Positions 1 through 41,324 of a stretch of 41,324 nucleotides of DNA are shown piece by piece. The translations under genes were made by a program, and so were the position numbers. Origin of the DNA: a virus. Position 1 is the stretch's first letter. Every line of letters starts with the position of its first letter. Where the stretch lies: positions 1 through 41,324 of IMG/VR virus record IMGVR_UViG_3300044621_001214; one strand, 5' to 3'. A model generated the notes under the pieces. The model ran no database searches, had not been told where the DNA came from, and worked only from the letters and a program-made list of their open reading frames with translations.

Positions 1-64
<64 letters not shown>

Positions 65-74
65 GTGTGGTGGA

Positions 75-126
75 TGGGCCGGGTTGGATTTGAACCAACG
101 TAGGCAGAGCCAGCGGATTTACAGTC
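75..126 (-). pseudogene. tRNA-Tyr(GTA) 3' fragment left by integration
   Basis: Minus-strand reading gives the 3' 52 nt of tRNA-Tyr: from the anticodon loop (CTGTAAA) through the variable arm and T arm to the acceptor CCGGCCCA. The 5' 30 nt (acceptor 5' strand, D arm and 5' anticodon stem) are missing and replaced by phage sequence from position 127. The intact gene is regenerated at the other end of the prophage. Confidence 0.88.
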
Positions 127-15487: not shown

Positions 15488-15930
15488 AGTGGTCTGAGCC
15501 CACATCTGCAAGGGTGCAGCACATTGCCACCCACCTGCGCTATCAAGATGAGCTCGAGGTCCTCTACAGCCATGGCCTGGCGGGCAAAGACGCGGTTGAG
15601 AGGAGCTGGAAAAACAGCGCAATCTGTCGTTGCATAGATGGAGATGACGGGAGGCCAGTGGGGATCTGCGGCGTGAATGGCACAGAGATCTGGTTGCTCG
15701 GCACGGACGGGCTTCTGGCAACGCCAAGCCACCGCCGGCAGTTCATTCGCGGCGGGCGCGAGTGGGTCGATGGGTTGCTGGCCGACGGCCACGACTTCTT
15801 GGAGAACTGGGCCCTGGCGTCAAACAGCGCAACCCTGCGATGGCTGACGCACCTCGGCTTTCGGATCGACACCCCTGAGCCAAGGGGCCGCAGCGCCCAG
15901 CTGTTCTGTCACTTCTGGAGGCTGGCCTGA
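15484..15930 (+). CDS. Internal protein gp13-like, GNAT-like fold
   Basis: 148 aa from ATG 15484 (ATGA overlap; an upstream start at 15445 lies inside the tail tubular B gene). GNAT-like features are visible: EIWLLGTDGLLATPSHRRQFIRGGREWVDGLL in the middle, then LENWALASNSATLRWLTHLGFRID, the N...A..WL..LGF signature of acetyltransferases. Proteins with this look occupy the gene 13 position in many T7-like phages, but the acyl acceptor is unknown and it may be purely structural. Its stop shares a base with the next start. Confidence 0.75.
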   Translation: MKWSEPTSARVQHIATHLRYQDELEVLYSHGLAGKDAVERSWKNSAICRCIDGDDGRPVGICGVNGTEIWLLGTDGLLATPSHRRQFIRGGREWVDGLLADGHDFLENWALASNSATLRWLTHLGFRIDTPEPRGRSAQLFCHFWRLA

Positions 15931-16778
15931 TGGTGGTAATCGATCCCATCTCCCTTGCCTTTGGCGCCGCCAACATGGGCATGGGGATTATGGGCGGCAT
16001 GGCCTCTCAGGCCGCGCAGCAACAGGACTACGTCAATCAACGGGCCTTCCAAGACGCGAACAACAAGTTCGCCATCTGGCAGGCCGGTTTTAACGCCAGG
16101 GTCAATGATGCAAATAACCAGTACAAGTACTGGGCGGATACGGTTAATTACAACCAAAGCCTTGCTTACACCAACGCGCTCAGAAATGTTGAGCTTGTAA
16201 AGGCTGCACGACAGGCAGACGTCGTTGGACAAACAAGGGCAGCTGCAGGGTCCAGCTATTTGCTTGATTCTGAAGCGATTAGCCAGCAGTTTGCCGAGGC
16301 CTCGATGCAGGAAGCTGTGGCGATGCAGCAGTATCGCTGGCGAGCTCTGCAATCTCGCGCATCTGTTCAAGCACTCAACCAGGAAGGCCAGAGCGTTGAT
16401 CGCCTTGTCAATGACTATGCAAGGCAGCTCGGCGACTATGAAACGCTGCAGGCCATCAATCAGGGCATTCGTGGTCGGCAGTACTCACGTGAGCAAGCAG
16501 GCCGCGTGGCGCAGTACCTCAGCCAATGGAATAGCCAGCAGTTCTACGAAGAGCAGGGCTACATCGATCCGATTGCGCCCTTCGCGCCGCTGCCCACGCT
16601 GATGCAGCCAGGCGGCCCGACGATGACTGGGTCGCCACCCAGTGCTGCTGCGGGCGCTCTCAACATCGGCACCGCGGTGCTGGGTGGGGTCAACAGCGTC
16701 TTCTCGATGCAGAACACGCTCAACTCTCTCAAGATCCCCAGCAGCAGCTCGGGATCAGGCACACCAAAGGGGGTTTAA
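15930..16778 (+). CDS. Internal virion protein B, T7 gp14-like
   Basis: 282 aa. The N terminus has a Gly/Ala/Met-rich hydrophobic stretch (LAFGAANMGMGIMGGMASQAA), followed by long Asn/Gln/Ala-rich helices (residues ~30-190) and a flexible C terminus with a second small hydrophobic stretch (ALNIGTAVLGGVNSVFS). This layout matches the gp14-type core protein that is ejected and inserts in the outer membrane. It sits between gp13-like and gp15-like genes as in T7. The gene is somewhat more AT-rich than its neighbours. Confidence 0.82.
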   Translation: MVVIDPISLAFGAANMGMGIMGGMASQAAQQQDYVNQRAFQDANNKFAIWQAGFNARVNDANNQYKYWADTVNYNQSLAYTNALRNVELVKAARQADVVGQTRAAAGSSYLLDSEAISQQFAEASMQEAVAMQQYRWRALQSRASVQALNQEGQSVDRLVNDYARQLGDYETLQAINQGIRGRQYSREQAGRVAQYLSQWNSQQFYEEQGYIDPIAPFAPLPTLMQPGGPTMTGSPPSAAAGALNIGTAVLGGVNSVFSMQNTLNSLKIPSSSSGSGTPKGV

Positions 16779-16781
16779 GTC

Positions 16782-19706: not shown

Positions 19707-19709
19707 CCA

Positions 19710-22700
19710 ATGCCCGCTTTCAACCTTGCCCCGATTGACGACGACTCGGCGTTTGATCCGGTGATTCCTGCCGCGCCCTCCCCTGCGCAGGGCGGTGGCG
19801 GCGGAGAAGCTCGGCCGCGCAAACCCGCGACCAGAGCCGAAACCAACCAGCGCATCGAACAGGCCGCTGGACCGTTGAAGCCGTTGGCTCAGTTCATGAA
19901 TGCTCTGGCCTCACCCGATACGAAAGCTGGGCTTGTTGTGGGGCCGATCAATGCGGTCAGCAAACTCGGCAACGCTTTCGGAGATTGGGTGCAGCGCAAA
20001 CCAATTGATACCCGCGACGCATGGAAGATTCCCGATGCGGCAGCCAGGGCGCTCAATCCGTTTCGCATCGGACCAACCTACGGAGAAGTGACCCCGGCCG
20101 ATGAAGCTGGGATGCAACTCGGCGGCGCGATCGGCGGAGAAATTGTCGGCGCAATCACCGGGTCCACAGTGTTGCGACGGCTTGGCCAGGCGGCGCAGGT
20201 CAAGCGCGCCGCTGACGCACTCAAAGCCACCCGAGCGGTCCGCGGCCTGGCGGTGGCCCAACGAGCCAACCCTGTCCTGCGAGCTGGCGTGAGCGTCACC
20301 CAGAAGGTGGGCGAGGCCCTGGTGGGCACCACCATGGCGGCGCCGTTCATCGACATGGATCAGAACCTCGCCAACGTCGGCGATGCGTTTGGACTGAGGC
20401 TGCCGGGCCGGGCAGAAGAAACCGACGACTACCTGACTCGCTTTGGCAAGGGCCTGCTGGTGGAGGGCATCGCCGCACCACTTGGGGTGATCGGTGCCGC
20501 CAGCATGGTTCCGGGCCTACGCAAGATGATGTTCGGCGGGTCCACCTTCCTTGATGACCTGGCTGACGCTGAGCTAGCCCCCTACATGTATCGGGGCACG
20601 GATGCCCCGCAGCTGCCACCGGCAGCCCCTACGCCCCAGCTGCCCAGCGTGCAGATGCAGGCAGCAGCAGACGACAGCCCAATCACACCAGCCCGAATCG
20701 ACGTTCAGACACCAGGCGGCCCTCTACCTGCAGCTGGTGCACCCGATGCTCCTGGCCTGCCTCCGTATCAGCCAGGCGGTGCGCTGGTTCCGACAACCCC
20801 GAACGGCAGCGCGATCGAGCGCTACCTCGACGAGAGCGTTCAGATTCGCCAGGTCGAGGAACAGCGCCAGCGCCTGATGTCGGCCGGGCTGGTTGAGCAA
20901 GGCGAAGCGGGCCAGCTTGCGCTGAAGGTGGACACCGGCAACCCCGAGGCCAGGTTCGAGATCGAGCAGCTGCAGCAGCAGCGCGGCCGATTGGTGGCAC
21001 AGGTAACCGCGGCCGACCCGCAAACCACTGAGCAACTGATGCAGCAGATCGATCAGATCGATCAGCAGGTGGCAGACCTGAACCTTTCCGGCACCACCGA
21101 AAGTTTTCTTGCGCCTCGCGGCAGCCGTCAGGGGGAGCTGAACCTCGACACCAGGCCAGAGATCGACACGTACCTGGCCCAGCTCGACGAGCTCGACGAT
21201 GCCCAGCTGCGTGAGATTCACGCGCGGGTGTGGCGCGAGGCCGGCGAAGCTCGCAACGCCGAAGAAATGGCTATCGCAGAGCAGCGAATTGCCGAGCTGA
21301 ACCAGCGGTTGGCCGACATCGATGCGCGACAAGCAGATGGAACGATTACGCCACGTGGCGCCAAAGGCCAAATCACCCGCGTGCAGCGCGAGCTGCAGAC
21401 TGCACAGCAGCAGCTGCAAACGGTGCAGCAGAGGCTGCAGGCACCAGAAACGCTGGTGGGCCAACAGCTGGAAATGAACCTGCCGCAGCAGCTGGGCCTC
21501 GACCTAGCGCCAGATGTGCAGCTCCCTCCAATTCCCCAGGCCATTCAGCGCGGGACAGAGTTTGGCTACCAGACCCCCAACGACTACCGGACTGCGCTTC
21601 AGGCGTGGCCGCGGGATCTGCTTCGCCGCTTGGCAATGCCGGACTCTTCCCCAGAGGTGGCAGCACTGGTCAAAGCGCGCACTGGCCGGCGTGTGTGGCA
21701 GGCCAAGAAGCAGGACATCATCGATGCCCTTGTGGAGCTCAGTGAACGGCGCGGCAGCTATCTGCCGCCGACCCCTGAGCAGCTGTCCATGCCGTTGACG
21801 ACCAACATGGCCGGCGTCGGCGATGCGCCATTGCTTGATGTCCCCGCTGACCTGAACACGACATCGCCAATGGGGCGGATTGTGGATGCCGATGGCAATG
21901 AGATCACCGTGCCTCTGGCCGAGTACAGGCCACGGGGGATGGATGCTGAGACGCGCGAACGGCTGAAGATGCAGATCTTGCGTCGCGCAATTGACAACGG
22001 CGAAGTGCAAGCACCGGTCACTCCGATCCCGAAGCGGCCGGCTGAACCCGAGTTTTTCAAGCAGCAGAACTTCATCGATGAGCTACTGAGCGACGAAACG
22101 GGCCAGATGGCCCTGATGTTCAACAACGATGCTCTGCCCATCTATAAGGCAAGCGGGAAAAATGCTGATGCGTTGATCGATGAGATGCGTCTTCGCTTCG
22201 AGTACAACCTGCTCGATGCGAAAGCAATGCAAGCGCAGAAGGATGCGCTGATGGCCGCCTACGGGTGGGATGGCCTGAGCTGGGAAGAGAAGAAGCGACT
22301 GGGGCTGATGGGCCGCGGCATGTTCCGAATGTCAGCCGAAGACCTGGCTGCCCCCAGGGACACGTTCCGGCAGCCAACTCCCCAGTACGACCCTGAGCTT
22401 CCGATCACCGGCGAGCGCACTCCCCAGCCGTATCGCGGGGAGGGATCGGACCAGGCCGGGGCAACGCCACAGTTCACTCCAGAACTGCAGCCCAAGCCTG
22501 AGCGGAAGCCGGCGGTCTACGACACCAAGAGTGTGATGGCCAGCATCAACGGCGAGGCCGTTGTTGTCCCGAAAGAGGCCGTGCCTTCTCCGCCCAAAAC
22601 CAAGGGCAAAGGGAAGGCCAAGCCCACCACGGCCGAGGCCAAGGCTGCCCAGCAAGCCCTGGCCGACATCCCCAAGGCGCGAGCTGAGCTCGCCAAGCAG

Positions 22701-22742
22701 CTGGAGGAGCTGCGCAAAAAATCCCAAGGAGGCTCCTGCTGA
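19710..22742 (+). CDS. Large internal virion protein, first part of gp16-like function
   Basis: 1010 aa, family not firmly recognised. Residues ~130-280 contain Gly/Ala-rich hydrophobic stretches (AGMQLGGAIGGEIVGAITGSTVLRRLG; LLVEGIAAPLGVIGAASMVPGL) that could enter a membrane. Residues ~370-600 are coiled coil with many Gln (IEQLQQQRGRLVAQV; QLMQQIDQIDQQVADLNL; RELQTAQQQLQTVQQRLQ). The C terminus is Pro/Lys-rich, ending ELAKQLEELRKKSQGGSC. Position after the gp15-like gene and size suggest an ejected core protein. The next gene starts in TGATG overlap with a strong AAGGAGG site. Confidence 0.7.
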   Translation: MPAFNLAPIDDDSAFDPVIPAAPSPAQGGGGGEARPRKPATRAETNQRIEQAAGPLKPLAQFMNALASPDTKAGLVVGPINAVSKLGNAFGDWVQRKPIDTRDAWKIPDAAARALNPFRIGPTYGEVTPADEAGMQLGGAIGGEIVGAITGSTVLRRLGQAAQVKRAADALKATRAVRGLAVAQRANPVLRAGVSVTQKVGEALVGTTMAAPFIDMDQNLANVGDAFGLRLPGRAEETDDYLTRFGKGLLVEGIAAPLGVIGAASMVPGLRKMMFGGSTFLDDLADAELAPYMYRGTDAPQLPPAAPTPQLPSVQMQAAADDSPITPARIDVQTPGGPLPAAGAPDAPGLPPYQPGGALVPTTPNGSAIERYLDESVQIRQVEEQRQRLMSAGLVEQGEAGQLALKVDTGNPEARFEIEQLQQQRGRLVAQVTAADPQTTEQLMQQIDQIDQQVADLNLSGTTESFLAPRGSRQGELNLDTRPEIDTYLAQLDELDDAQLREIHARVWREAGEARNAEEMAIAEQRIAELNQRLADIDARQADGTITPRGAKGQITRVQRELQTAQQQLQTVQQRLQAPETLVGQQLEMNLPQQLGLDLAPDVQLPPIPQAIQRGTEFGYQTPNDYRTALQAWPRDLLRRLAMPDSSPEVAALVKARTGRRVWQAKKQDIIDALVELSERRGSYLPPTPEQLSMPLTTNMAGVGDAPLLDVPADLNTTSPMGRIVDADGNEITVPLAEYRPRGMDAETRERLKMQILRRAIDNGEVQAPVTPIPKRPAEPEFFKQQNFIDELLSDETGQMALMFNNDALPIYKASGKNADALIDEMRLRFEYNLLDAKAMQAQKDALMAAYGWDGLSWEEKKRLGLMGRGMFRMSAEDLAAPRDTFRQPTPQYDPELPITGERTPQPYRGEGSDQAGATPQFTPELQPKPERKPAVYDTKSVMASINGEAVVVPKEAVPSPPKTKGKGKAKPTTAEAKAAQQALADIPKARAELAKQLEELRKKSQGGSC

Positions 22743-25700
22743 TGGCTGACTGCAACAACCTCGCCCAACAGATCGACGAGATCGAGGCGAAGCTCAAGCA
22801 ACTGGATGACATGGAGGCCGCTGCCAGGGCCATTCTTGACCTGGAAGAGCTGCCTGCTGCTGGCAAGAGCGTGGCCAGGCTGCGCACCTACACCGGCCAG
22901 GAGATCGGCGTCTCCCAAGAAGCCTGGATCAAACAGGCCGAAACGGATCTGATTGCCAAGGGCGACAGAACGGTGAAGGACCTGGTGGAAATGGGGTTCC
23001 GCGACCAGGAGGGGCCTTCAGGATCCAGCGGTCGAATGATCAACTACCGCCAGTACGGGGTGGATTACAGCGAGCTCCCTCCTGAGCTCGAGAACGTCAA
23101 CGCTTTGCTGGAAGTGATGGGCCTGCAGCGGGCCAACACAACCAAGGGCGTGGAGCTCAAGCAGCGCTTCAGCGAGTCTGTGGCGATGCGCAGTTTGATG
23201 CGCATGGCTCAGGAGTTTGGTGGCGATGCCCGCGAGGTGGCAACCGCCTTGGGGCGCCGGCTCAAAGGGATCGACAGGCTGCCGGCATCTGTGGTGCAGG
23301 TGGCCAAGGCTCGCTGGGATTCGGTAAGCCAATACGCCGACAAGCTGGAAGAGGTAGCCAATGCCCTGGAGGTTGGGGCTCTGACAGAAGAACTGCGGCT
23401 TCAGCTGGGCAATGCAGCGCAGTGGGCGCATTTCTTTGAGAACCTCGACAGCGCGGTCCGTCGCCGTTTGGGCCAAGCCTTCCGCGGCCTGCAGTTTGAC
23501 TTCCGCGGCACCGAGATGGATCTGATCGTGCCCGATGCCAACTGGGCACGTCTGACGATGGCCGACATCAAAGGCGAGACCCTGCTTGGCCAGACCCTGG
23601 AACACGTCGAGAAAGGTGACTTCCTGAAGCTGCGGCAATTGGCAGCAGTGGCTCGAACCAACAAGCTCACCCGCACCAACATGAATCAGGGGCGCTTGAT
23701 GTCGCAGATCGCCCTGCTCAACAACTTTCGGCGCAACAACATGCTGCTGTCGCCGGGCACCTGGTTGGCCCGGAACCCGGTAAGCGGGGCGCTGGTGACC
23801 TTTCACCACGGCCTAGAAGACATCTTTGAGGGCGGGCTGCGCGTCGGCGCGATGGAAGGCTTAAAGGCCGCGGCTTTTGCCAACCGCGCCACGCTCGACG
23901 CTTGGCAGATGGCTTGGAAAAACGCCACCACCTACCTGGGGACTGGCAAGGCGCGGATGGGATTGGAGAACGCCATGGAAGTGGCGCCTGATCTGATCGA
24001 GAACGAAAAGCAGCAAATCGTCGATGCCCTCACCACTGGCTTTGCACTGCTGCAAGACCACACCTACTGGCGCAACACGGTGGGAGCTGGCCCGGCGGTC
24101 ACGCTGATGAATGTGCTCAACGCCGCCACCAGCCTGACCCTTGGCAAGTTGGGCGAGCGCTTCCTTGGTTGGGATGGTGGTTATCTGCCGGCTTTCCGGC
24201 TGCTAGGAGCTGGCGACGAGGCAGTCCGGACCATGGCTTACGCATGGAAGGTGAACCACGAGGCTTACCTGCGGGCGGCGCAAGAGGGCGCTGAGACTGT
24301 GGACAGCGCTGGTCGGCGGATGGGTTCCGACTGGATTACTCAGCGTGCCGAACAAATGGCCGAGGGCTCCCTGTTTACCGGCTACATGAGCCAGGAGGAC
24401 CTGGTGAAGTTTCGCCGCGAGCGCGGCATCCCAATGGGCGATGAACTCCCCGATGACGTGCTGCGGTTGCAGGCCTTCAACGACCTGAAGGGCGTGCCAA
24501 GGGCCGACACCGAGCTGGGCGCCATGGGCCTGCAACGAGCGGCCGACGTCACCTTCACCAACACGATCAAGGACCCGATCATTCAGGGCCTCGGTCTGAC
24601 TCGGCAGAACGCGCTGGTGGCATGGCAGCTGCCGTTCTTCAAGAGTCCGCTCAACTCCTTGCTGTGGAGCATCGATCGCACGGTGGTCCCTTCAGTGGTG
24701 AAGGCCCTTGGCGCACAAATGGAAAACGCGGCGCCTGAGGTGCTGGCCCAGGCCAGGGCCCAGGCGATCGTGTCATTGGGCTTCTTTACCGCCGGCAGTG
24801 CCCTGATTGCCAGTGGCGGCTTTGTTGGGGGTGGGCCATCCGACCCCATGGAGTACGACCGCTGGCGAAAGCTCAACACGCCCTACAGCTTCCAGCTCAA
24901 CGGGAAAGTGATCCCGGCAGCCAGGTTCCGGCTTGGCGGGATCGATCCCATCGACATTCTTGGCCTCTACGCCGACATCCAGCAGCTGGTGCTTGAGGAA
25001 GGGATCAGCGAGGGCGACGGCACTAAGGCGCTGCAGGGCCTGGCGACAGCCCTGGCTCGAATGTTCAACAACAAGGCGAGCCTGCTGAACACCACCACGG
25101 TGCTCAATGCCATGACCCAGCCAGACCGCGCTGACATGGCCGACATCCTGGCCACCCAGATGGGCGGGATCATGCCGCTTTCTGGCTTGCTGTCGATGGT
25201 GGCTCGCGCGGGCCGCGATGCTTTGCAGGCCACCGATCGTCGCCGCTTCCTTTCCGCTGACGAAAAGAAGGCGCTGGAGATGGATCCGATCTACATCGAA
25301 CACATCGCGCCGGTGATGGAGTTCCTGCAAAAAGTGGGCGAGAAAGTGGCTCGGCCGATCCCTGGGCTCAACCAGGTGCTTCGGGCTCCCGAGCGCGACG
25401 ACTGGTTGGGCAGTGAAATCAAGCGACCCTTTGGCATCCCGGCCGAAGCAGTGATCCCTTTCATGCCGGTGATCCAACCCCAGGACAGCCTTTACCAGTG
25501 GTTGCTTGATGCAGGGCTGACAACCAAGCCAAGGCCCAACGGCCAGGTGGCACTGCCGAGCCCTGACGGCTCGGGCGACGTCGGTCTCACCATGACGAAT
25601 GAGGAGGAGAAGTTCTACCGGGTGCAGATGCGCAGCATCAAAGCAGAGATTCCGGCAGCGCAGATGCTGGGCCGCGACCCCTACATGCCAATTGACACCT

Positions 25701-26026
25701 TCATCCAGGGCCGCGACATGCGGAGTGCACTGCGGGCGTTGAAAAACAACCCTGGCTACCAAAAGCTGCTGGCGAACGATCCGATGGGACCTGACCAGCG
25801 GGTCAACCCGGCGAAGTTTTCGGTGCGCAAGGAGAGCGAGCTCTACCGCCCCATCCAGGACATCATCGACTACTACGACCGGGCGGCGCTGATTCAACTG
25901 CTGACCAACGAAGACCCAGTGGCGCAGGGCTTTGCCAAGCGCTACGGAGCAATGGTGAAGTACCGCTCAAACCAGCTGCGCACACGGATGGAGGAACTGT
26001 CCGGCCTGGGAGTTGGACGGCAGTAG
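22742..26026 (+). CDS. Large internal virion/ejection protein, gp16-like
   Basis: 1094 aa. Mostly helical; starts with a coiled coil (NNLAQQIDEIEAKLKQLDDMEAAARAIL, from residue 4). The middle has NNFRRNNMLLSPGTWLARNPVSGALVTF, and the second half has ALVAWQLPFFKSPLNSLLWSIDRTVVPS followed by IVSLGFFTAGSALIASGGFVGGG, a hydrophobic stretch. The FF..P.N...... R..P motif before a hydrophobic segment recurs in large phage proteins that cross membranes during ejection. With the preceding 1010-aa protein it appears to share the work of the single 1318-aa gp16 of T7. No peptidase or nuclease motif was seen. A dyad and the tail fibre gene follow. Confidence 0.72.
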   Translation: MADCNNLAQQIDEIEAKLKQLDDMEAAARAILDLEELPAAGKSVARLRTYTGQEIGVSQEAWIKQAETDLIAKGDRTVKDLVEMGFRDQEGPSGSSGRMINYRQYGVDYSELPPELENVNALLEVMGLQRANTTKGVELKQRFSESVAMRSLMRMAQEFGGDAREVATALGRRLKGIDRLPASVVQVAKARWDSVSQYADKLEEVANALEVGALTEELRLQLGNAAQWAHFFENLDSAVRRRLGQAFRGLQFDFRGTEMDLIVPDANWARLTMADIKGETLLGQTLEHVEKGDFLKLRQLAAVARTNKLTRTNMNQGRLMSQIALLNNFRRNNMLLSPGTWLARNPVSGALVTFHHGLEDIFEGGLRVGAMEGLKAAAFANRATLDAWQMAWKNATTYLGTGKARMGLENAMEVAPDLIENEKQQIVDALTTGFALLQDHTYWRNTVGAGPAVTLMNVLNAATSLTLGKLGERFLGWDGGYLPAFRLLGAGDEAVRTMAYAWKVNHEAYLRAAQEGAETVDSAGRRMGSDWITQRAEQMAEGSLFTGYMSQEDLVKFRRERGIPMGDELPDDVLRLQAFNDLKGVPRADTELGAMGLQRAADVTFTNTIKDPIIQGLGLTRQNALVAWQLPFFKSPLNSLLWSIDRTVVPSVVKALGAQMENAAPEVLAQARAQAIVSLGFFTAGSALIASGGFVGGGPSDPMEYDRWRKLNTPYSFQLNGKVIPAARFRLGGIDPIDILGLYADIQQLVLEEGISEGDGTKALQGLATALARMFNNKASLLNTTTVLNAMTQPDRADMADILATQMGGIMPLSGLLSMVARAGRDALQATDRRRFLSADEKKALEMDPIYIEHIAPVMEFLQKVGEKVARPIPGLNQVLRAPERDDWLGSEIKRPFGIPAEAVIPFMPVIQPQDSLYQWLLDAGLTTKPRPNGQVALPSPDGSGDVGLTMTNEEEKFYRVQMRSIKAEIPAAQMLGRDPYMPIDTFIQGRDMRSALRALKNNPGYQKLLANDPMGPDQRVNPAKFSVRKESELYRPIQDIIDYYDRAALIQLLTNEDPVAQGFAKRYGAMVKYRSNQLRTRMEELSGLGVGRQ

Positions 26027-26046
26027 CAGCTCCCTTAGCATGAAGT

Positions 26047-26060
26047 CTGCACCAGTGCAG
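26047..26060. promoter_or_regulatory. CTGCA-N4-TGCAG dyad (perfect) before the tail fibre
   Basis: CTGCA-CCAG-TGCAG within TAGCATGAAGT...ACCTCAC, in the 41-bp gap between the gp16-like stop and the GTG start of the tail fibre, which begins 7 bp after the dyad. The upstream 11 bases match those of the 12310 copy at 9 positions. Confidence 0.6.
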
Positions 26061-26067
26061 ACCTCAC

Positions 26068-27642
26068 GTGCCTCTCTCCTACGCGCAATACGCGGGCAAC
26101 GGGTCCACGACGACCTTCTCGGTCCCGTTCCCCTATCTGCTGAAGGCGCACGTGAAGCTCTACACAGGCTTCAGCATCATCAGCGGCACCTACACCAGCC
26201 TGCTGGTGGATGGCACGGATTACACCTGGACGAGTTCTACACAGGTGCAGTTGTCGGTCGCCCCAGCCAACGGGGTGACGCTGACTGTCCTTAGGGACAC
26301 GCCTGATAGTTCGCAGCTGGTGCCGTGGCAAGACGGCTCGAACCTGATTGCTGAAGATCTCAACATTGCTGACCTGCAGAACCTGTACGTCGTCCAGGAG
26401 CAGCAGGACCGCAACGACGCAGGGATCACGCAGTCAACGGCCGCGGCTGCTGCAGCGACCGCTGCCACCACGGCTGCCAACACTGCAACCAGCACGGCCA
26501 ACGCTGCCACCTCGACAGCAAACACGGCTCTCAGCACAGCCAACACAGCGCTGAGCACGGCCAACACGGCCAGCACCAACGCATCTGCGGCAGTCAGCAC
26601 GGCCAACACGGCCAGCAGCAATGCCTCAGCCGCTGTGACGACCGCCAACGCAGCCAGCGCCACGGCCAACACGGCCAGCACCAACGCCAGCAACGCGGTC
26701 ACTACGGCCAACGCTGCCAGCGCCGCTGCTGCCTCCGCAACGACCACGGCCAACACCGCCGCAAGCAATGCTTCGACAGCGCTGAGCACGGCCAACACGG
26801 CCAGCAGCAATGCCGCTGCAGCGGTCAGCACGGCCAACACCGCCAGCACCAATGCGAGCAACGCGGTTTCAACGGCAAACACGGCCAGCAGCAATGCCTC
26901 AACGGCCCTGAGCACCGCCAACACGGCCGCTTCCAATGCTTCAACGGCGCTCAGCAATTCAACTGCAGCCGTGAGCACGGCAAACAGCGCAGCTGCGGCA
27001 GTTGCGGCCGCAATTTTTTACACACCTGTCATTGATCTTGCAGCTCTTGGCGCTTTGACGCCAGCCAATGGCGATTACTACGAGCTGCAGAACTCAACGG
27101 GGGCAGAAGTCAGCCCATTAATTGTTAGCGTACCTGGCGGTCTTGTCGGCGCTGCCGGCATCACCATGAGGCTGAGGTACGACAGTCCGCCAGGCAAGCA
27201 TGTGTTTCTTGGCTATTACGCCAATGATTCGGAAACTCGCTACGCCAAACTTAGCGATGCTCGGCTTTCAGATGCAAGAACACCAACTGACGGCTCGGTA
27301 ACGAATGCAAAGGTTGCTGCTGGAGCTGCTATTGACCCCAGCAAGATTGCTGGCACTGCAGTTGTCAATGCAGACACAAGGCTTTCAGATGCAAGAACAC
27401 CAACTGACGGCTCGGTAACGAATGCAAAGGTTGCTGCTGGAGCTGCTATTGCAGGTTCCAAGATTGACGCAAACTTTGCAGGCCAGCGCGTTGTTGCTGG
27501 TGTATTTATTGAGAACACTAAAACAGTGTCCTCAAATTACACAATTCCAGCTGGCAGGGGTGTTATGAGCGTAGGGCACATCTCTATTGCTTCTGGCGCC
27601 ACTGTCACTGTCTCCTACACTTCCAACTGGGTGATCCTCTAA
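26068..27642 (+). CDS. Tail fibre protein with T7 gp17-like N-terminal domain
   Basis: 524 aa from GTG 26068. Residues 1-115 (YAQYAGNGSTTTFSVPFPYLLKAHVKLYTG... DGTDYTWTSSTQVQLSVAPANGVTLTVLRDTPD... LIAEDLNIADLQNLYVVQEQQD) match the N-terminal, tail-attaching domain of the T7 fibre. Residues ~130-315 are 14-residue repeats such as AVSTANTASSNASA, i.e. double heptads forming a long trimeric rod. The C terminus has a 39-residue unit repeated twice (RLSDARTPTDGSVTNAKVAAGAAI). No large receptor-binding head follows; that role is likely taken by the DGR target gene, which overlaps the stop codon (TAATG). Confidence 0.92.
   Translation: MPLSYAQYAGNGSTTTFSVPFPYLLKAHVKLYTGFSIISGTYTSLLVDGTDYTWTSSTQVQLSVAPANGVTLTVLRDTPDSSQLVPWQDGSNLIAEDLNIADLQNLYVVQEQQDRNDAGITQSTAAAAAATAATTAANTATSTANAATSTANTALSTANTALSTANTASTNASAAVSTANTASSNASAAVTTANAASATANTASTNASNAVTTANAASAAAASATTTANTAASNASTALSTANTASSNAAAAVSTANTASTNASNAVSTANTASSNASTALSTANTAASNASTALSNSTAAVSTANSAAAAVAAAIFYTPVIDLAALGALTPANGDYYELQNSTGAEVSPLIVSVPGGLVGAAGITMRLRYDSPPGKHVFLGYYANDSETRYAKLSDARLSDARTPTDGSVTNAKVAAGAAIDPSKIAGTAVVNADTRLSDARTPTDGSVTNAKVAAGAAIAGSKIDANFAGQRVVAGVFIENTKTVSSNYTIPAGRGVMSVGHISIASGATVTVSYTSNWVIL
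26450..27010 (+). repeat. 14-residue (42-nt) tandem repeats in the fibre shaft
   Basis: About a dozen degenerate repeats of A-V/L-S-T-A-N-T-A-S-S/T-N-A-S-x. Codon choice differs among units, so the protein period is conserved better than the DNA. Alanine and small polar residues at a 7-residue spacing fit a coiled-coil or beta-helical shaft. Confidence 0.75.
27263..27334 (+). repeat. 72-bp perfect direct repeat, copy 1 (fibre C terminus)
   Basis: Identical to 27380-27451, offset 117 bp (39 codons). It encodes LSDARTPTDGSVTNAKVAAGAAI. Perfect nucleotide identity points to a recent duplication or ongoing copy-number change. Confidence 0.9.
27380..27451 (+). repeat. 72-bp perfect direct repeat, copy 2 (fibre C terminus)
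   Basis: Second copy of the 72-bp unit at 27263-27334, in the same reading frame. Slippage or recombination between the two would add or delete 39 residues without changing frame. Confidence 0.9.
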
Positions 27643-28703
27643 TGCCATACGGTTCTCTTGCGATTGACGCCATTGAAACCAGCACGCAATTCGTGCAGGT
27701 GGATGACTTGCTTCCAAAAAGCGGTGTTTTTTACAACCGCCGTCCTCCATTTCAGCGCGGCTCGTTGTTTTACAAAACCAGCGGCACCGCTCTCAGTGTG
27801 GTTGCAGGCGCTGTTCTGAATGGCTATCGGTACACAGTGGCCACAGCTGTGACGATGCCAAGCCACAGCAACAATGCTGATTACGCCATCTGGCAGCATC
27901 CAACCACCGGTGCACTTGTCGGGGACGCCAGTTTCACCACAGCCCCTGCCGGCGCCAGCGGCGGCTCAATTGTGGGTGGCTACCACTACATCCCCAGTGG
28001 CCGGCCCACAGCTGTCAATAGCGGCAGCCTGACGGGCTCTGCAGAGATCCTGGAGTTCAGCCTGTGGGATCTGACCTGGCGACCGAGCTGCCCGGATCCT
28101 CGGGGAATGGCCTGCATTGAAGGCGGGTTCTGGATCGACCTCTACCTGTGTGGCGCAACCAGCTACGCAGGCAGCACCTTCAGCGCAGTGCCCAGCAGCC
28201 GAATTGGCCTGACGATCGCCGATGGCAGCAGCCCGCCGCTGGTGCCCGCTCAGTTTGGCGGCAATGGCAGCACGGCCTATGGCAATGGCAAGTGGTTCGT
28301 GTTCAGCGAGGTGGCCCGCAGCTTCGGCAAACGGCTGCCGACCTACGACGAATACAGCGCTGCAGCGTTTGGAGGCCCAGAAGCTGGCAGCAGGGGGTCA
28401 GACCCAGGCACTGTGCAATGGGAGAGGGTCAGCAAGTTCGGCCTGGCTCAATCAACGGGGACGTTGTGGGTCTGGGGCCAGGAGACCTGCACTGCTGAAT
28501 CGCCATCCGCTTGGACAACTGGCACAGAGACAGATGGCCGCGGCCAGATCTACGGATCTCAAACCCGCGCCGTCATCCTGGGCGGGGGCTGGGACGCCGC
28601 ATCCTATTCCGGCTCGCGGTGTGCCTACTGGGGCCTCACTCCATGGAGCTCCGGCGTCAGCTTTGGGGCTCGTTTTGCGGCCGGGCACCTGGTACTTGGA
28701 TAG
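27642..28703 (+). CDS. DGR target: variable receptor-binding protein, C-type-lectin/FGE-like fold
   Basis: 353 aa, starting on the stop of the tail fibre (TAATG). The C-terminal ~170 residues carry formylglycine-generating-enzyme-like lectin-fold signatures: FSEVARSFGKRLPTYDEYSAAAFGGPE, GTLWVWGQE, then GRGQIYGSQTRAVILGGGWD...SGSRCAYW...GARFAA. Residues 309-348 are the variable repeat. All 11 Asn codons of the template repeat, plus one Ile, have been changed here (G316, D318, A319, Y322, Y329, G331, L332, S336, G338, V339, S340, F341), while the scaffold residues W317, W330, W335 and GARFAA are unchanged. This is the layout of Mtd-type adhesins: a fixed lectin scaffold with diversified surface loops. 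It is most likely the receptor-binding tip of the fibre. Only six residues follow the VR. Confidence 0.93.
   Translation: MPYGSLAIDAIETSTQFVQVDDLLPKSGVFYNRRPPFQRGSLFYKTSGTALSVVAGAVLNGYRYTVATAVTMPSHSNNADYAIWQHPTTGALVGDASFTTAPAGASGGSIVGGYHYIPSGRPTAVNSGSLTGSAEILEFSLWDLTWRPSCPDPRGMACIEGGFWIDLYLCGATSYAGSTFSAVPSSRIGLTIADGSSPPLVPAQFGGNGSTAYGNGKWFVFSEVARSFGKRLPTYDEYSAAAFGGPEAGSRGSDPGTVQWERVSKFGLAQSTGTLWVWGQETCTAESPSAWTTGTETDGRGQIYGSQTRAVILGGGWDAASYSGSRCAYWGLTPWSSGVSFGARFAAGHLVLG
28567..28683 (+). repeat. DGR variable repeat (VR), 117 bp
   Basis: Aligns without gaps to the template repeat at 29139-29255. Of 117 positions 98 are identical. The 19 differences are all at sites that are adenine in TR (19 of 28 TR adenines replaced: 10 by G, 5 by T, 4 by C). 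The other 89 positions, all non-A in TR, are identical. The last ~21 bp (28663-28683, GGGGCTCGTTTTGCGGCCG and its left neighbours) are invariant and GC-rich, the expected place of the initiation-of-mutagenic-homing sequence. Confidence 0.98.
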
Positions 28704-28705
28704 GA

Positions 28706-28719
28706 GGCGCGACAGCGCC
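28706..28719 (+). promoter_or_regulatory. DGR target-site hairpin (GGCGC-GACA-GCGCC)
   Basis: A 5-bp perfect GC stem with loop GACA, 22 bp after the VR end and 2 bp after the target stop codon. In the Bordetella phage DGR a hairpin/cruciform with a GRNA tetraloop just after the VR increases homing; GACA fits GRNA, though this stem is shorter than the 7-8 bp known there. It also overlaps the AGGAGG ribosome site (28702-28707) of the avd gene, so it could influence that gene's translation. Confidence 0.6.
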
Positions 28720-28727
28720 GACTGCCC

Positions 28728-29123
28728 ATGACCATCAAACGAGCCTCTGCGGACCCCTCCAAGGAGGCTCACGGCCTCTACATGGTCGAGAAGTACGAGC
28801 GGGTCATCGACTACCTCTACCCGCTCGCTCAGACCATTCCACGCAAGCACGGCACCTTTCGAGAGCTGCTGATCAAGCAGCTCTTTTTGGTGGCTGAGCA
28901 CCTTAACGACGCCATCAAGGCAAACCAGCTGAGCCGCTGCTACGTGCTTGACGGCAGCCTGGGGCAGCTGCGGCTGATGCTGCGCTTCATGGTCCACCAC
29001 AAGCGCAAGCTGATGACCGAGCACCAGCTCGAGACCAGCCAGGCTTTGGTGGGCGAAGTGGGCGCCATGCTCGGCAGCTGGATCAAACGGCTGCAGGAAC
29101 AGAAAAAAGGTGCAAAGCTGTAG
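28728..29123 (+). CDS. avd: DGR accessory variability determinant (Avd-type protein)
   Basis: 131 aa, all-helical, basic at the C terminus (WIKRLQEQKKGAKL). The pattern KYERVIDYLYPLAQTIPRKHGTFRELLIKQLFLVAEHLNDAI, then LRLMLRFMVHHKRKL and EVGAMLGSWIKRL, fits the four-helix bundle that assembles as a barrel-shaped pentamer in Avd proteins. Avd binds the reverse transcriptase and TR-containing RNA and is needed for cDNA synthesis. It sits between VR and TR, the standard place. ATG 28728 has an AGGAGG site about 20 nt upstream; the intervening GACA hairpin may bring the two closer. Confidence 0.85.
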   Translation: MTIKRASADPSKEAHGLYMVEKYERVIDYLYPLAQTIPRKHGTFRELLIKQLFLVAEHLNDAIKANQLSRCYVLDGSLGQLRLMLRFMVHHKRKLMTEHQLETSQALVGEVGAMLGSWIKRLQEQKKGAKL

Positions 29124-29410
29124 CCGGTCTTGATGGGAGCGCCGTCATCCTGGGCGGGAACTGGAACAACGCATCCAATTCCGGCTCGCGGTGTGCAAAC
29201 TGGAACAACACTCCATGGAACTCCAACAACAACATTGGGGCTCGTTTTGCGGCCGTGGCAACTACCAAACACCATCCCGCTCTGCTGTTTCTCCGGGGCA
29301 GCAGGCCGGTGCCAACCAGGTGCCAGCCATCAAGTCCAGCTTCGGCAAACTCAGGGCCGAGTGGTGGCAATGGCAGGGAGTAGATCATCGAAACCTGCCG
29401 CTACCTTTTT
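29124..29410 (+). ncRNA. DGR template RNA region: TR plus spacer to the RT
   Basis: Non-coding stretch between avd and the reverse transcriptase. It holds the TR (29139-29255) and a 155-nt spacer that ends at the RT start. In Bordetella phage BPP-1 a comparable spacer of about 140 nt is required, and cDNA priming occurs within it, so this whole segment is likely transcribed as the functional template RNA. A short T run (ccttttt) immediately precedes the RT start codon. Confidence 0.8.
29139..29255 (+). repeat. DGR template repeat (TR), 117 bp
   Basis: Offset of exactly 572 bp from the VR. Read in the VR frame it encodes 11 Asn codons (ten AAC, one AAT) inside a W, G, S and R scaffold. Because AAC mutated at its two adenines can give many residues but no stop codon, this is the classic DGR template design. 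The 28 adenines are concentrated in the Asn codons. The 5' limit is set by the mismatch before GCGCCGTCATCC; the 3' limit by GTGG here versus GGGC in the VR. Confidence 0.98.
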
Positions 29411-30385
29411 ATGGGTAAAAAATACCGCAACCTTTATGAACGCATTTATGCGTGGGACAATCTTTTAACAGCTTACAAAGAGGCGCGCCGCGGCAAGACA
29501 TACAGCAGCTCTTATCTGCGCTTCAAGGAATACGCGTATCCAAACCTGCGCAACCTGCAAAAGCGACTGATTGACGGCAGTTGGCGCCCAGATGCGCAAC
29601 TTGAGTTTCAAATCATCGACCCCAAAAAGCGCACGATTGCCTGCCAAAGCTTTCGCGATCGCGTGCTCCACCACGCGCTGATTCAAGTGGTGGGCCCGAT
29701 TCTTGACTCCGCAATGATGCCACAGGTATTTGCCTGCAGGGTCGGCCTGGGCACGCATAAATGCGTGACGCGGATGCAGCAGCTAATGCGCCAAAATCCA
29801 GACGCATGGCTTTTGCATGTGGACTTCAGCAAGTTTTTCCCAACAATTCCGCAAGACCTGCTATTGGCTCATTTGGGCAAAAAACTTACCTGCCGCCGCA
29901 CGCTGCTTTTAATCAAGCAGGTGTTGTCTGTGCAGCCCGCTGGCGTGCCAATTGGCGCGCTCACCAGCCAGACATTTGCAAATTACTGGGGCGGCAAGCT
30001 AGACCGCTTCATTGCTGCAAACGCTGGTGGTCGCTTTGTCCGCTACATGGACGATGCCGTAGTAATCGTAAACAGCAAATCTGAAGGGCTTGCTTTGCAA
30101 GCAAAGATCTGCGCTTTTGCGGCCGCGGAAATGGGCCAGCGCATTGGCAAATGGAGCCTTGGGCCTGTAGATCGTGGCGTGACATTTTGTGGCTTTCGGA
30201 TCCGGCGCAAGTTCAAACTGATTAAGCGACAATCCATGATCCGGCAAAGGCGAAAGCTGCATTTTCTTCTGACGCATGAAGACCATGCAGGCTGGCGAGC
30301 CTCCCAAATTGCCTGGATGGGGCACTTGCGGCATGCTGATGGTCAGAACGGATTGGCCCATATGGGCCTTGCTTCTCCATGCTGA
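29411..30385 (+). CDS. DGR reverse transcriptase
   Basis: 324 aa, a typical compact DGR RT without maturase or integrase domains. RT motifs in order: R..FRDRVLHHAL (motif 1/2 region, ~75-95), HVDFSKFFPTI with the first catalytic Asp at 138, GVPIGALTSQTFANYWG at 178-194, and RYMDDAVVI with YMDD at 212-215. The I-G-x-x-x-S-Q sequence in the fourth motif is the signature that separates DGR RTs from group II intron and retron RTs. With Avd it copies TR RNA into cDNA while misincorporating at adenines, and the cDNA replaces the VR. Base composition is lower in GC than the virion genes, as if the cassette came from elsewhere. Confidence 0.96.
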   Translation: MGKKYRNLYERIYAWDNLLTAYKEARRGKTYSSSYLRFKEYAYPNLRNLQKRLIDGSWRPDAQLEFQIIDPKKRTIACQSFRDRVLHHALIQVVGPILDSAMMPQVFACRVGLGTHKCVTRMQQLMRQNPDAWLLHVDFSKFFPTIPQDLLLAHLGKKLTCRRTLLLIKQVLSVQPAGVPIGALTSQTFANYWGGKLDRFIAANAGGRFVRYMDDAVVIVNSKSEGLALQAKICAFAAAEMGQRIGKWSLGPVDRGVTFCGFRIRRKFKLIKRQSMIRQRRKLHFLLTHEDHAGWRASQIAWMGHLRHADGQNGLAHMGLASPC

Positions 30386-30633
30386 TCAACACCATTCAGG
30401 ACCTGCAATCGACGCCCGCCACGGCTGAGCGCCGTGCTTTTTTGCAGGCCCTCTACAACGACATGGTCACATTTGACGATGCCATCTATCCCGATGGTTA
30501 CGACAGCGGGCTGAACCCTGGCGACGACGGCTACGTGGCGCCGGCTTTTCGCCAAGAGTGGAACGCCGGCGCTGCCGCCTCCTGGGGTTTTGCTAGCCGT
30601 GAGCAAGTGAAGGCCGCTCTGGACGCAGCCTGA
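30379..30633 (+). CDS. Small hypothetical protein after the RT
   Basis: 84 aa from ATG 30379, overlapping the last 7 nt of the RT gene. Sequence: an acidic N-terminal helix (IQDLQSTPATAERRAFLQALYNDMVTFDDAIYP, from about residue 5), a Gly/Asp-rich centre (DGYDSGLNPGDDGYV) and a C-terminal helix (FASREQVKAALDAA). Not recognised. It could be a small virion protein or a DGR-linked gene, but nothing in it decides this. Confidence 0.6.
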   Translation: MLINTIQDLQSTPATAERRAFLQALYNDMVTFDDAIYPDGYDSGLNPGDDGYVAPAFRQEWNAGAAASWGFASREQVKAALDAA

Positions 30634-36431: not shown

Positions 36432-37406
36432 ATGACCACCACCACCGCAAAGGCCCGCAAAGGTCGCAAGCCGTACGACGGGCCCACCGCTGAAGAAAAG
36501 CTCTGCAGCGCACTTGTTGAGCTGCTGGAGAAAGGCGTTAACCCATGGCGCCGAGACTGGTCGCAGCTGGGCCAGCAGGGCCAACACCGGAACCTGCTGA
36601 CCGGTGCCGCCTACAGGGGCAGCAATCCGGCTGTGCTGGAGATGTGGTCGGCCTGCCGGGGGTTCTCTCTGCCGTTGTGGCTGGGCAGTGCTCAGGCCAA
36701 GGGCGAGGGCTGGTTCCCTCGCAAAGGCAGCAGCGGCTGCTACGTGCTCAGGCCTCAGCTCAACAAGCGGGAACAGCAGGACGAAACCGGCAAGCCGGTT
36801 AAGGGGCCCGATGGCCAGCCGCTGATCAGTGCTTGGGTTTCGTTCAAGCCGGTGTGCGTGTTCAACGTCGCCGACCTGGTGGGCAGCACACCAGAGGCCC
36901 AGCAGGCCCTGGAGGCCCGCATCTCCCAGGCCCTCGGCTCTGTGGTGGTCAGGCCTGAACCAGAACGGCTGGCAGCTGCTGAGGCAGTCCTAGGGGCCTG
37001 GCCGGTGCCCACCACGTGGGCTGGTGATCGGGCTTGTTACAGCCCTGCTGCTGACGCGATCACCATGCCCAGCCGCGCGCAGTTCGCAACGGCTGAAGGC
37101 CTGTATGCGACCTGGGCCCATGAGCAGGCCCATAGCACCGGCCACAGCAGCCGGCTGGGCCGTGATCTGTCTGGCAGCCATGGCAGCGAGGCCTACGCAA
37201 GAGAGGAACTGGTCGCCGAACTGGCCGCCTTTCTGATCTGTAACCGGCTGCAGATCAGCAGCAGCACCGAGAACCACGCCGCCTATCTGGGCTGCTGGGC
37301 CCGGGTGCTCAAGGCAGGCCCGCGGGTCCTGTTCAAGGCCCTGGGCGATGCCAGCAAGGCCACCGCGGCGATCTGCGGCCCAGACGTCACAGAGGACGAC
37401 GCCTGA
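36432..37406 (+). CDS. ArdC-like antirestriction protein / M78-type metallopeptidase
   Basis: 324 aa. The N-terminal ArdC domain (residues ~20-150) shows ALVELLEKGVNPWRRDW, YRGSNPAVLEM, and further on the AWVSFKPVCVFNVADLVG block, which in ArdC binds single-stranded DNA. The C-terminal metallopeptidase-like domain has YSPAADAITMPSRAQFATAEGLYATWAHEQAHSTGHSSRL, with HEQAH at 230-234 as the zinc site, and EELVAELAAFLIC supplying the downstream Glu. ArdC protects incoming DNA from restriction. Its place early in the right arm parallels T7 gene 0.3, whose product also blocks restriction, although the proteins are unrelated. Confidence 0.9.
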   Translation: MTTTTAKARKGRKPYDGPTAEEKLCSALVELLEKGVNPWRRDWSQLGQQGQHRNLLTGAAYRGSNPAVLEMWSACRGFSLPLWLGSAQAKGEGWFPRKGSSGCYVLRPQLNKREQQDETGKPVKGPDGQPLISAWVSFKPVCVFNVADLVGSTPEAQQALEARISQALGSVVVRPEPERLAAAEAVLGAWPVPTTWAGDRACYSPAADAITMPSRAQFATAEGLYATWAHEQAHSTGHSSRLGRDLSGSHGSEAYAREELVAELAAFLICNRLQISSSTENHAAYLGCWARVLKAGPRVLFKALGDASKATAAICGPDVTEDDA

Positions 37407-39737: not shown

Positions 39738-40736
39738 ATGGCAGGCTCTGTTCGCAAGGCCTCGGACGGCAGCTGGATTGCTGACGTCTCGATCAATGGC
39801 GTCCGTAAGACGGCCAAGTGCAAGACCCGCGCCGAGGCCCTGGCCCGCAAGCGCGAGTTTCTCGATCTGCTGCTGAAGCGGGAGGCCAAGCAGGTCCACC
39901 GCTCAGTGTTCACCCTGATTGAGGCCCGGGCGCTGTCGCTGCGGATCCGCTGGTCCGGCATGGCCTACGAGCGCACGGCCGCGATCTACAGCCAGGAGGC
40001 CGTCAACTACTTCGGCGCGGCGTTCCCCTGCGAAGAGCTCACAGCCACGCTGGTGGACGAGTGGCGCCAAGCCCTGGCAGCCAAGGGCAACAAGGCCAGC
40101 ACGATCAACAAGAAAGTCGCAGCCATCAGGGCCATGCTCAGCGATGCCCACCTCCATGGGCACCTGGCGGAAGTGCCGCGGATGCCGCGGCAGCTGCGGA
40201 TGCAGAACACCAAGGACCGGGTGTTCAGCCCTGAGGAGGTGGCCGGCTTCTGCAGGGTGTTCCGGGAGCTGGGCGAGCCTGCCGCGGCCGACCTGCTGGT
40301 CTTTCTGCTTGAGACCGCCTGCCGCTGGGGCGAGGCCGAGCGGCTAAAGGGCCAGGACGTGGACTTGGCCAAAGGCCGCGTCACCTTCTGGGCCACCAAG
40401 AACGGCAAGCCACGGTCGGTGCCGCTCACCCGCCGAGCAATCGACGCCCTCAAGACCTACATGCCTGCCGTTCGGGGGCATCGGGTCTGGCCCTACAGCT
40501 ACAACCGCTTCGAGTACCTGTTCGACCGGGCCAAGGACGCCATGGGCCTCGGCGAGGACCGGGCGCTGACCATTCACACCACCCGGCACAGCTGCGCCAC
40601 CCGATTGGCCAGCAAGGGGATCCCCCTGCACCAGCTGATGGCCTTTGGAGGGTGGACGTCCCTGGCATCGGTCCAGAGGTACCTCCACCTGCACACAGAC
40701 GCCTTGGCGGGCTGCGTGCAGGCCCTGGAGGCCTGA
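39738..40736 (+). CDS. int: Tyrosine-type site-specific integrase
   Basis: 332 aa. An N-terminal arm-binding part (MAGSVRKASDGSWIADVSINGVRKTAKCKTRAEALARKREF) is followed by a SAM-like core-binding domain (~58-145) and the catalytic domain. The catalytic set is complete: Arg 196 (ETACRWGEAERL), Lys 221 (ATKNGKPRSVPL), His 280 and Arg 283 (IHTTRHSCATRL), Trp 306 (GGW) and nucleophile Tyr 315 (QRYLHL). It would recombine attP with the tRNA-Tyr gene and lies within 400 bp of attR. Its leader carries the CCAACAACC element, so its expression may follow the same signal as the antirestriction gene. Confidence 0.95.
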   Translation: MAGSVRKASDGSWIADVSINGVRKTAKCKTRAEALARKREFLDLLLKREAKQVHRSVFTLIEARALSLRIRWSGMAYERTAAIYSQEAVNYFGAAFPCEELTATLVDEWRQALAAKGNKASTINKKVAAIRAMLSDAHLHGHLAEVPRMPRQLRMQNTKDRVFSPEEVAGFCRVFRELGEPAAADLLVFLLETACRWGEAERLKGQDVDLAKGRVTFWATKNGKPRSVPLTRRAIDALKTYMPAVRGHRVWPYSYNRFEYLFDRAKDAMGLGEDRALTIHTTRHSCATRLASKGIPLHQLMAFGGWTSLASVQRYLHLHTDALAGCVQALEA

Positions 40737-41122: not shown

Positions 41123-41256
<134 letters not shown>

Positions 41257-41324
41257 CGCCCCCATTAACCACTCGGGCACCGACCCGAACCACACCGCAA
41301 GAACTTACCAGCAGGGGTTCCCCT

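What the first reader, a model, noticed from the sequence alone, without database searches (positions are those of the whole stretch)
27642..30385. Complete diversity-generating retroelement in a T7-like cyanobacterial prophage
Target gene with VR, Avd, TR and RT occur in order within 2.7 kb, directly after the tail fibre. TR (29139-29255) and VR (28567-28683) align without gaps over 117 bp. All 19 mismatches fall on the 28 TR adenines and none on the 89 other positions. The RT has YMDD and the I-G-x-x-x-S-Q motif. Established knowledge: this is the signature of adenine-specific mutagenic retrohoming as in Bordetella phage BPP-1. Inference: the phage diversifies its receptor-binding tip. I know of no T7-like temperate cyanophage described with a DGR, but I could not search.
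Basis: partly seen in the sequence, partly recalled or inferred. Interest (0 to 1): 0.96.

Follow-up and report, generated by a model that had tools for sequence, protein, structure and literature searches.

The report
Self-mutating tail-tip gene in a cyanophage
A virus that lies dormant in the chromosome of a very small cyanobacterium carries the same gene set that lets a known Bordetella phage rewrite the tip of its tail, and near-identical relatives show that this set has been active recently; the machine is a known one, but its home in T7-like viruses of cyanobacteria appears undescribed.

Summary
TR 29139-29255 and VR 28567-28683 align without gaps over 117 bp. All 19 differences lie on the 28 TR adenines, none on the 89 other bases (p about 2e-15). 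The order fibre, Mtd-like target, Avd, TR, RT and a small downstream gene is that of Bordetella phage BPP-1. Target, Avd, RT, TR spacer RNA (Rfam Phage_DGR) and the hairpin behind VR all match BPP-1 parts. The phage is a temperate T7-like cyanophage: 126-bp direct repeats of cyanobacterial tRNA-Thr/tRNA-Tyr lie at its ends, and S-SRP02 is its nearest isolate, without a DGR. In 31 loci (window included) 57% of TR adenines but 1.4% of other bases are changed. Two near-identical genome pairs differ mostly inside VR, only at TR-adenine sites, so the family has been active recently. It is a new member of a known kind in a new setting. New points: S-CBS-type siphoviruses share the cassette, and isolates S-CBS1/S-CBS3 are deletion derivatives. 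A relative 97.7% identical in its virion genes carries an unrelated complete DGR at the same place. Receptor switching is inferred, not shown.

The parts
26068..27642 (+). Tail fibre with T7 gp17 N-terminal (virion-anchoring) domain; translationally coupled to the target gene
   Evidence: PF03906 1.1e-25; overlap of stop and ATG
27642..28703 (+). DGR target: Mtd-like receptor-binding protein; Mtd residues 66-380 matched, N-terminal part of Mtd not matched
   Evidence: PF21916 1e-15; phrog_11262 tail 8.5e-117; PDB 1yu3 2.5e-57
28567..28683 (+). Variable region (VR) in the last codons of the target; 11 AAY-derived codons, no TR codon can mutate to a stop
28706..28719 (+). Hairpin/cruciform GGCGC-GACA-GCGCC, starting 22 nt behind VR just after the stop codon; stem kept by compensatory change (GGCGC/GCGCC in 23, GGCCC/GGGCC in 11 loci)
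   Evidence: role in BPP-1 from PMC3240598
28728..29123 (+). Accessory variability determinant (Avd)
   Evidence: PF22296 1.4e-20; 47% identical to BPP-1 Avd
29139..29255 (+). Template repeat (TR)
29279..29405 (+). TR-spacer RNA, Rfam RF03022 Phage_DGR
   Evidence: 70 bits, gathering 50; BPP-1 104.7 bits
29411..30385 (+). DGR reverse transcriptase (YMDD; IGALTSQ)
   Evidence: median dN/dS 0.073 over 533 pairs of relatives, no stops
30379..30633 (+). Small conserved gene (84 aa), homologue of BPP-1 Bbp4 in the same place; goes with Mtd even where avd-TR-RT is deleted
39738..40736 (+). Tyrosine integrase (temperate life style)
   Evidence: PF00589 5.3e-22
1..126 (.). Left attachment repeat (tRNA-Thr and 3' half of tRNA-Tyr)
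   Evidence: identical to 41131-41256
41131..41256 (.). Right attachment repeat; complete tRNA-Thr (41123-41194) and tRNA-Tyr (41205-41286), both on the minus strand, followed by host DNA

Best explanation
It is a complete BPP-1-type diversity-generating retroelement in an integrated, temperate T7-like phage of a picocyanobacterium (Synechococcus/Cyanobium/Prochlorococcus group). The TR RNA with its Phage_DGR spacer is bound by RT and Avd and copied into cDNA with random bases opposite adenines. The cDNA replaces VR, guided by the shared 3' end of TR/VR and the hairpin behind VR. The result is up to 10^14-10^15 variants of an Mtd-like protein that sits on the tail fibre and touches the host. 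Shown here: anatomy, adenine-only change, recent VR change in near-identical relatives, purifying selection on RT, compensatory change in the hairpin. Inferred: activity of this very copy, biochemical steps (from BPP-1), receptor switching.
For: 19 of 19 VR changes at TR adenines. Target, Avd, RT and spacer RNA match BPP-1 parts in the same order. In 31 loci 469 of 826 TR adenines are changed versus 38 of 2801 other bases. L022/L023: 11,802 bp with 8 substitutions, 4 in the 104 bp of VR held, all at TR-A (p 4e-7 for clustering). L010/L012: 3,006 bp with 12 substitutions, 8 in VR, all at TR-A (p 2e-9). Five loci share one identical TR but have five different VRs. RT median dN/dS 0.073, no stops in any copy checked. 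Hairpin at a fixed distance in 34 of 34 loci with compensatory stems. Prophage ends and integrase.
Against: No reads, culture or biochemistry; activity was seen in relatives, not in this phage itself. No contig with the same TR was found, so its own VR could not be compared. The hairpin stem is 5 bp, shorter than the 7-10 bp reported for phage DGRs (PMC3240598). The Mtd structure model was of low confidence, so the fold rests on sequence similarity to solved Mtd.
Confidence: 0.93

Rival explanations
1. The cassette in this copy is a recently silenced relic: VR was diversified in the past but the prophage no longer does so.
For: Prophages decay. Isolates S-CBS1/S-CBS3 lost avd-TR-RT, and some relatives have eroded TRs (L034, L031, L026).
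Against: All ORFs are intact, RT motifs are kept, 19 of 28 adenine sites are changed with zero change elsewhere, and RTs of the family are under strong purifying selection. A silent TR/VR pair would gather changes at other bases.
Confidence: 0.06
2. VR diversity arises by ordinary recombination among phages that exchange VR segments, not by reverse transcription from TR.
For: The cassette moves between phages.
Against: Recombination would not confine changes to positions that are adenine in the phage's own TR. Near-identical pairs differ at scattered single TR-A sites.
Confidence: 0.02
3. The DGR is active but diversifies something other than host attachment, for example a decoy or a lysogen surface protein.
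For: Function of the target is inferred by homology only; a DGR target in Quimbyvirus lies outside the structural module (PMC8008677).
Against: The target is homologous over most of its length to Mtd, follows and is coupled to a T7-type tail fibre, and belongs to a tail-protein family.
Confidence: 0.04

Closest known systems
Bordetella phage BPP-1 DGR (mtd-avd-TR-brt, bbp4)
   Same: Gene order including the fibre before mtd and the small gene behind brt; Mtd 39%, Avd 47%, RT 38.5% identical; spacer RNA of the same Rfam family; hairpin with a 4-nt loop of the GRNA form behind VR; same layout of AAY codons in TR
   Different: T7-like cyanophage backbone, picocyanobacterial host, Mtd N-terminal part not matched, hairpin stem 5 bp instead of 8
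Cyanosiphoviruses S-CBS1 and S-CBS3 (annotated mtd)
   Same: Mtd 64-72% identical and the small downstream gene; hairpin kept
   Different: avd, TR and most of RT deleted; only the 3' end of RT remains, so the target is frozen; uncultured relatives (L006, L035, L044) have the complete DGR
Synechococcus phage S-SRP02 (freshwater cyanopodovirus, PMC8790148)
   Same: Whole backbone: TerL 91%, MCP 90%, nozzle 86%, integrase 75%, same lack of T7 DNA polymerase
   Different: No Mtd, Avd or RT; a different fibre module at that place
Engineered T7 with gp17-Mtd chimera (LR745708)
   Same: A T7-type fibre bearing an Mtd tip
   Different: Man-made single chimaeric protein without a DGR; here two coupled natural genes plus the DGR

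Membership tests
Diversity-generating retroelement (BPP-1 type) | RT of the DGR kind (IGxxxSQ, YxDD) | tested here: met
   IGALTSQ, YMDD; best structure match BPP-1 bRT 6.7e-70
Diversity-generating retroelement (BPP-1 type) | TR and VR that differ only at TR adenines | tested here: met
   19 of 19 at 28 adenines
Diversity-generating retroelement (BPP-1 type) | Avd between target and TR | tested here: met
   PF22296 1.4e-20; 47% to BPP-1 Avd
Diversity-generating retroelement (BPP-1 type) | Target with C-type-lectin (Mtd) domain, VR at its end | tested here: met
   PDB Mtd 2.5e-57 by sequence; own fold model too weak to use
Diversity-generating retroelement (BPP-1 type) | Hairpin/cruciform behind VR (7-10 bp GC stem, GRNA loop) | tested here: inconclusive
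   Present, fixed at +22 nt, compensatory stems, loop GACA in the window; stem only 5 bp, and 10 of 34 loci have loops outside GRNA (GCCA, GTCA, GTTA)
Diversity-generating retroelement (BPP-1 type) | TR-spacer RNA needed for cDNA synthesis | tested here: met
   RF03022 70 bits
Diversity-generating retroelement (BPP-1 type) | Mutagenic retrohoming shown by experiment | not testable with these tools
   Indirect: VR-only change in near-identical relatives
T7-like phage (Autographiviridae) | Single-subunit RNA polymerase and T7-type virion genes | tested here: met
   PF00940 1.5e-46, PF25675 3.8e-236, PF21703 2.8e-39, PF22530 2.2e-34
T7-like phage (Autographiviridae) | T7-type DNA polymerase | tested here: not met
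   No PF00476 match in the window; S-SRP02, which GenBank files in Autographiviridae, has only a short exonuclease-like protein under the name DNA polymerase I. Hence called T7-like here, not filed in the family
Integrated prophage of a picocyanobacterium | Integrase, attachment repeats at a tRNA gene, host DNA outside | tested here: met
   only about 70 bp of host DNA on one side

The most novel reading that the evidence does not exclude
In temperate S-SRP02-like T7-like cyanophages the tail-tip locus is an exchange site. Whole DGR cassettes are gained, lost and replaced by unrelated DGRs on an otherwise near-identical genome. One BPP-1-type cassette, including a Bbp4-like small protein not so far counted as part of the Mtd system, circulates between podoviruses and siphoviruses of the same hosts.
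Probability: 0.55. Interest if true: 0.62.

Novelty: new member of a known kind. Interest (0 to 1): 0.5.

Why it matters
Picocyanobacteria and their phages dominate many waters, and how phages keep up with receptor change is an open question there. A BPP-1-type DGR with signs of recent activity in temperate T7-like and S-CBS-type cyanophages gives a testable mechanism in cultivable hosts. It also explains why S-CBS1 and S-CBS3 carry an Mtd without an RT, and offers a natural counterpart of the engineered T7-Mtd chimera. The replacement of one DGR by another on a near-identical backbone would point to selection for hypermutability itself at that locus.

Tried and rejected
RT relatives in GTDB genomes: none found (only two peptide patterns were used, so weak evidence of absence). 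Exact TR search in IMG/VR: none. AlphaFold model of the target: mean pLDDT 40, not used. Fold search for the 84-aa gene: no meaningful PDB match although the model is confident, so its role stays open. Papers: terms for DGR with cyanophage, Synechococcus prophage, T7-like/Mtd, Autographiviridae and cyanopodovirus gave no report of a DGR in a T7-like cyanophage, but subscription journals are not held and supplementary tables were not read. Chance and assembly duplication as sources of TR/VR were rejected: adenine-only pattern, repeated in 33 other loci. RT tree: T7-like and siphovirus copies do not form separate clades in the best tree, but support is too weak to count transfers.

Full report
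Observation. TR 29139-29255 and VR 28567-28683 are 117 bp, ungapped, with 19 mismatches, all at the 28 TR adenines (11 to G, 5 to T, 3 to C) and none at the other 89 bases; the chance of that placement is about 2e-15. Outside those borders the similarity stops at once. The 11 AAY codons of TR in the target frame can change to 15 amino acids each, and no codon of TR can become a stop in the window or in any of the relatives; the window's TR allows about 10^14.7 proteins.

The parts. The target (27642-28703) matches Pfam mtd_2nd and, over residues 42-352, the solved Mtd proteins of Bordetella phages (2.5e-57). Avd (28728-29123) matches bAvd. The RT (29411-30385) has YMDD and IGALTSQ and matches the BPP-1 bRT structure at 6.7e-70. 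The stretch between TR and RT is a member of Rfam family RF03022, Bacteriophage DGR RNA (70 bits, cut-off 50); BPP-1 itself scores 104.7. Behind the target's stop codon lies GGCGC-GACA-GCGCC (28706-28719). In 34 loci this hairpin starts exactly 22 nt behind VR; 23 loci have stem GGCGC/GCGCC and 11 GGCCC/GGGCC, a compensatory change on both sides, with loops GACA, GCCA, GGCA, GTCA and GTTA. In BPP-1 such a hairpin is needed for efficient homing, stem structure counts rather than sequence, and phage DGRs were reported with 7-10 bp stems and GRNA loops (PMC3240598). The stem here is shorter (5 bp; 7 bp in L005), and 10 of 34 loops depart from GRNA.

Same order as BPP-1. BPP-1 runs fibre bbp9, mtd, avd (bbp7), TR, brt, bbp4. 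The window runs fibre, target, avd, TR, RT, 84-aa gene. The 84-aa gene lies directly behind RT in nearly all loci that extend that far. A profile of it finds the Bbp4 reading frame as the only significant hit in the first 8 kb of BPP-1 (E 8e-4; pairwise 39.5% over 43 aa). It stays with Mtd in S-CBS1 and S-CBS3, where avd-TR-RT is gone, which points to a role with the Mtd tip and not with the RT (inference). Its fold model is confident but resembles no solved structure.

The phage. Single-subunit RNA polymerase, gp2.5-like protein, RusA, exonuclease, portal, scaffold, capsid, tubes/nozzle, internal proteins, T7-type fibre and terminase make it T7-like, but no DNA polymerase of the T7 kind is present. 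The closest isolate is Synechococcus phage S-SRP02 (TerL 91%, MCP 90%, integrase 75%), which lacks Mtd, Avd and RT. The ends of the window are a 126-bp direct repeat (1-126, 41131-41256) of a tRNA-Thr and the 3' half of a tRNA-Tyr. The right copy continues into the rest of tRNA-Tyr and about 40 bp more, which match Synechococcus/Cyanobium genomes at 95-97% over about 200 bp. With the tyrosine integrase this is an integrated prophage.

Activity. 43 IMG/VR loci encode the RT at 73-86% identity. TR and VR could be read in 33 of them. Over 31 full-length loci (window included, one duplicate left out) 469 of 826 TR adenines (57%) and 38 of 2801 other bases (1.4%) differ; without L034, whose TR is eroded, 24 of 2697 (0.9%). 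Five loci (L003, L010, L012, L015, L017) share one identical TR and have five different VRs. L022 and L023 share 11,802 bp with 8 substitutions, four of them in the 104 bp of VR held and all at TR adenines. L010 and L012 differ at 12 sites in 3,006 bp, eight in VR and all at TR adenines (clustering p 4e-7 and 2e-9). RT genes show median dN/dS 0.073 and no stops. So the family homes in nature now or very recently; for the window's own copy this is inferred from its perfect pattern.

Distribution. The cassette sits in S-SRP02-like phages (window, L037, L013), more distant T7-like phages (L011, L014-L016, L022-L024, L029-L031, L042) and S-CBS-type siphoviruses (L006 98% to S-CBS3 proteins; L044 97-99% to S-CBS1 proteins). 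S-CBS1 and S-CBS3 share one deletion junction: the hairpin GGCGCGACAGCGCC runs straight into the last part of the RT gene, so these isolates are DGR-deletion derivatives with a frozen Mtd. L186, 97.7% identical to the window over 13.7 kb of virion genes and 95.5% over 4 kb behind the cassette, has in its place an unrelated complete DGR: RT 30% identical, own bAvd, 121-bp TR/VR with 22 of 22 differences at TR adenines, an 8-bp hairpin with GACA loop, and no RF03022 match. Among the seventeen contigs found through a virion protein of the window, an RT is present in two, but several are fragments.

Known or new. This is a member of the BPP-1 kind of DGR. No held paper reports a DGR in a T7-like cyanophage, but global surveys (for example PMC8144416) worked from similar metagenomes and may hold such contigs unnamed. 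The new points are the setting, the evidence of recent homing, the sharing across virion types, the loss in isolates, and the exchange of one DGR for another.

Limits. Contigs are metagenome assemblies, so chimaeras cannot be excluded, above all where VR and TR are near-identical repeats (L004, L009) and in the contig with two copies (L011/L013). Receptor binding, virion presence and homing of this copy are untested.

Noticed in passing
L186:15563-18794: On a backbone 97.7% identical to the window (window 12742-26438) the whole fibre-end/Mtd/DGR segment is replaced by an unrelated complete DGR (RT 30% identical, 121-bp TR/VR with 22 of 22 changes at TR adenines, 8-bp hairpin GGGGAGGC-GACA-GCCTCCCC).
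   Followed up: partly
L045:5812-7367 (S-CBS3), L046:5929-7385 (S-CBS1): Isolated cyanosiphoviruses keep Mtd, hairpin and the 84-aa gene but have avd-TR-RT deleted at the same junction, with the RT 3' end left as a remnant; uncultured close relatives L006, L035, L044 are complete.
   Followed up: yes
L034:9731-9847, L031:9729-9845, L026:1685-1801: Template repeats that have themselves lost adenines (18, 8 and 6 of the consensus adenines) in a VR-like way, as if mutagenised cDNA had overwritten TR; in L034 the VR seems older than the present TR. This would exhaust the system.
   Followed up: partly
window 30379-30633: 84-aa gene overlapping the RT end, homologous to BPP-1 Bbp4, conserved with Mtd across the phages of the family; unknown fold and function.
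   Followed up: partly
window 1-41324: T7-like phage without a T7-type DNA polymerase between its attachment repeats; it probably uses host replication.
   Followed up: partly
L011 and L013 (same contig, 58,560 bp): One contig holds two T7-like segments of different divergence that share a 4.2-kb, 99.5% identical stretch with the same DGR and identical VR; tandem prophages or an assembly chimaera.
   Followed up: no
L009:795-2897, L004:6570-6584: L009 has Mtd directly before RT with no room for Avd and TR, and L004 lacks about 60 bp of VR compared with L005; deletion or assembly collapse between VR and TR.
   Followed up: no
window 36432-37406: ArdC-like anti-restriction protein with zincin domain (PF18818, PF08401) in the lysogeny region.
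   Followed up: no
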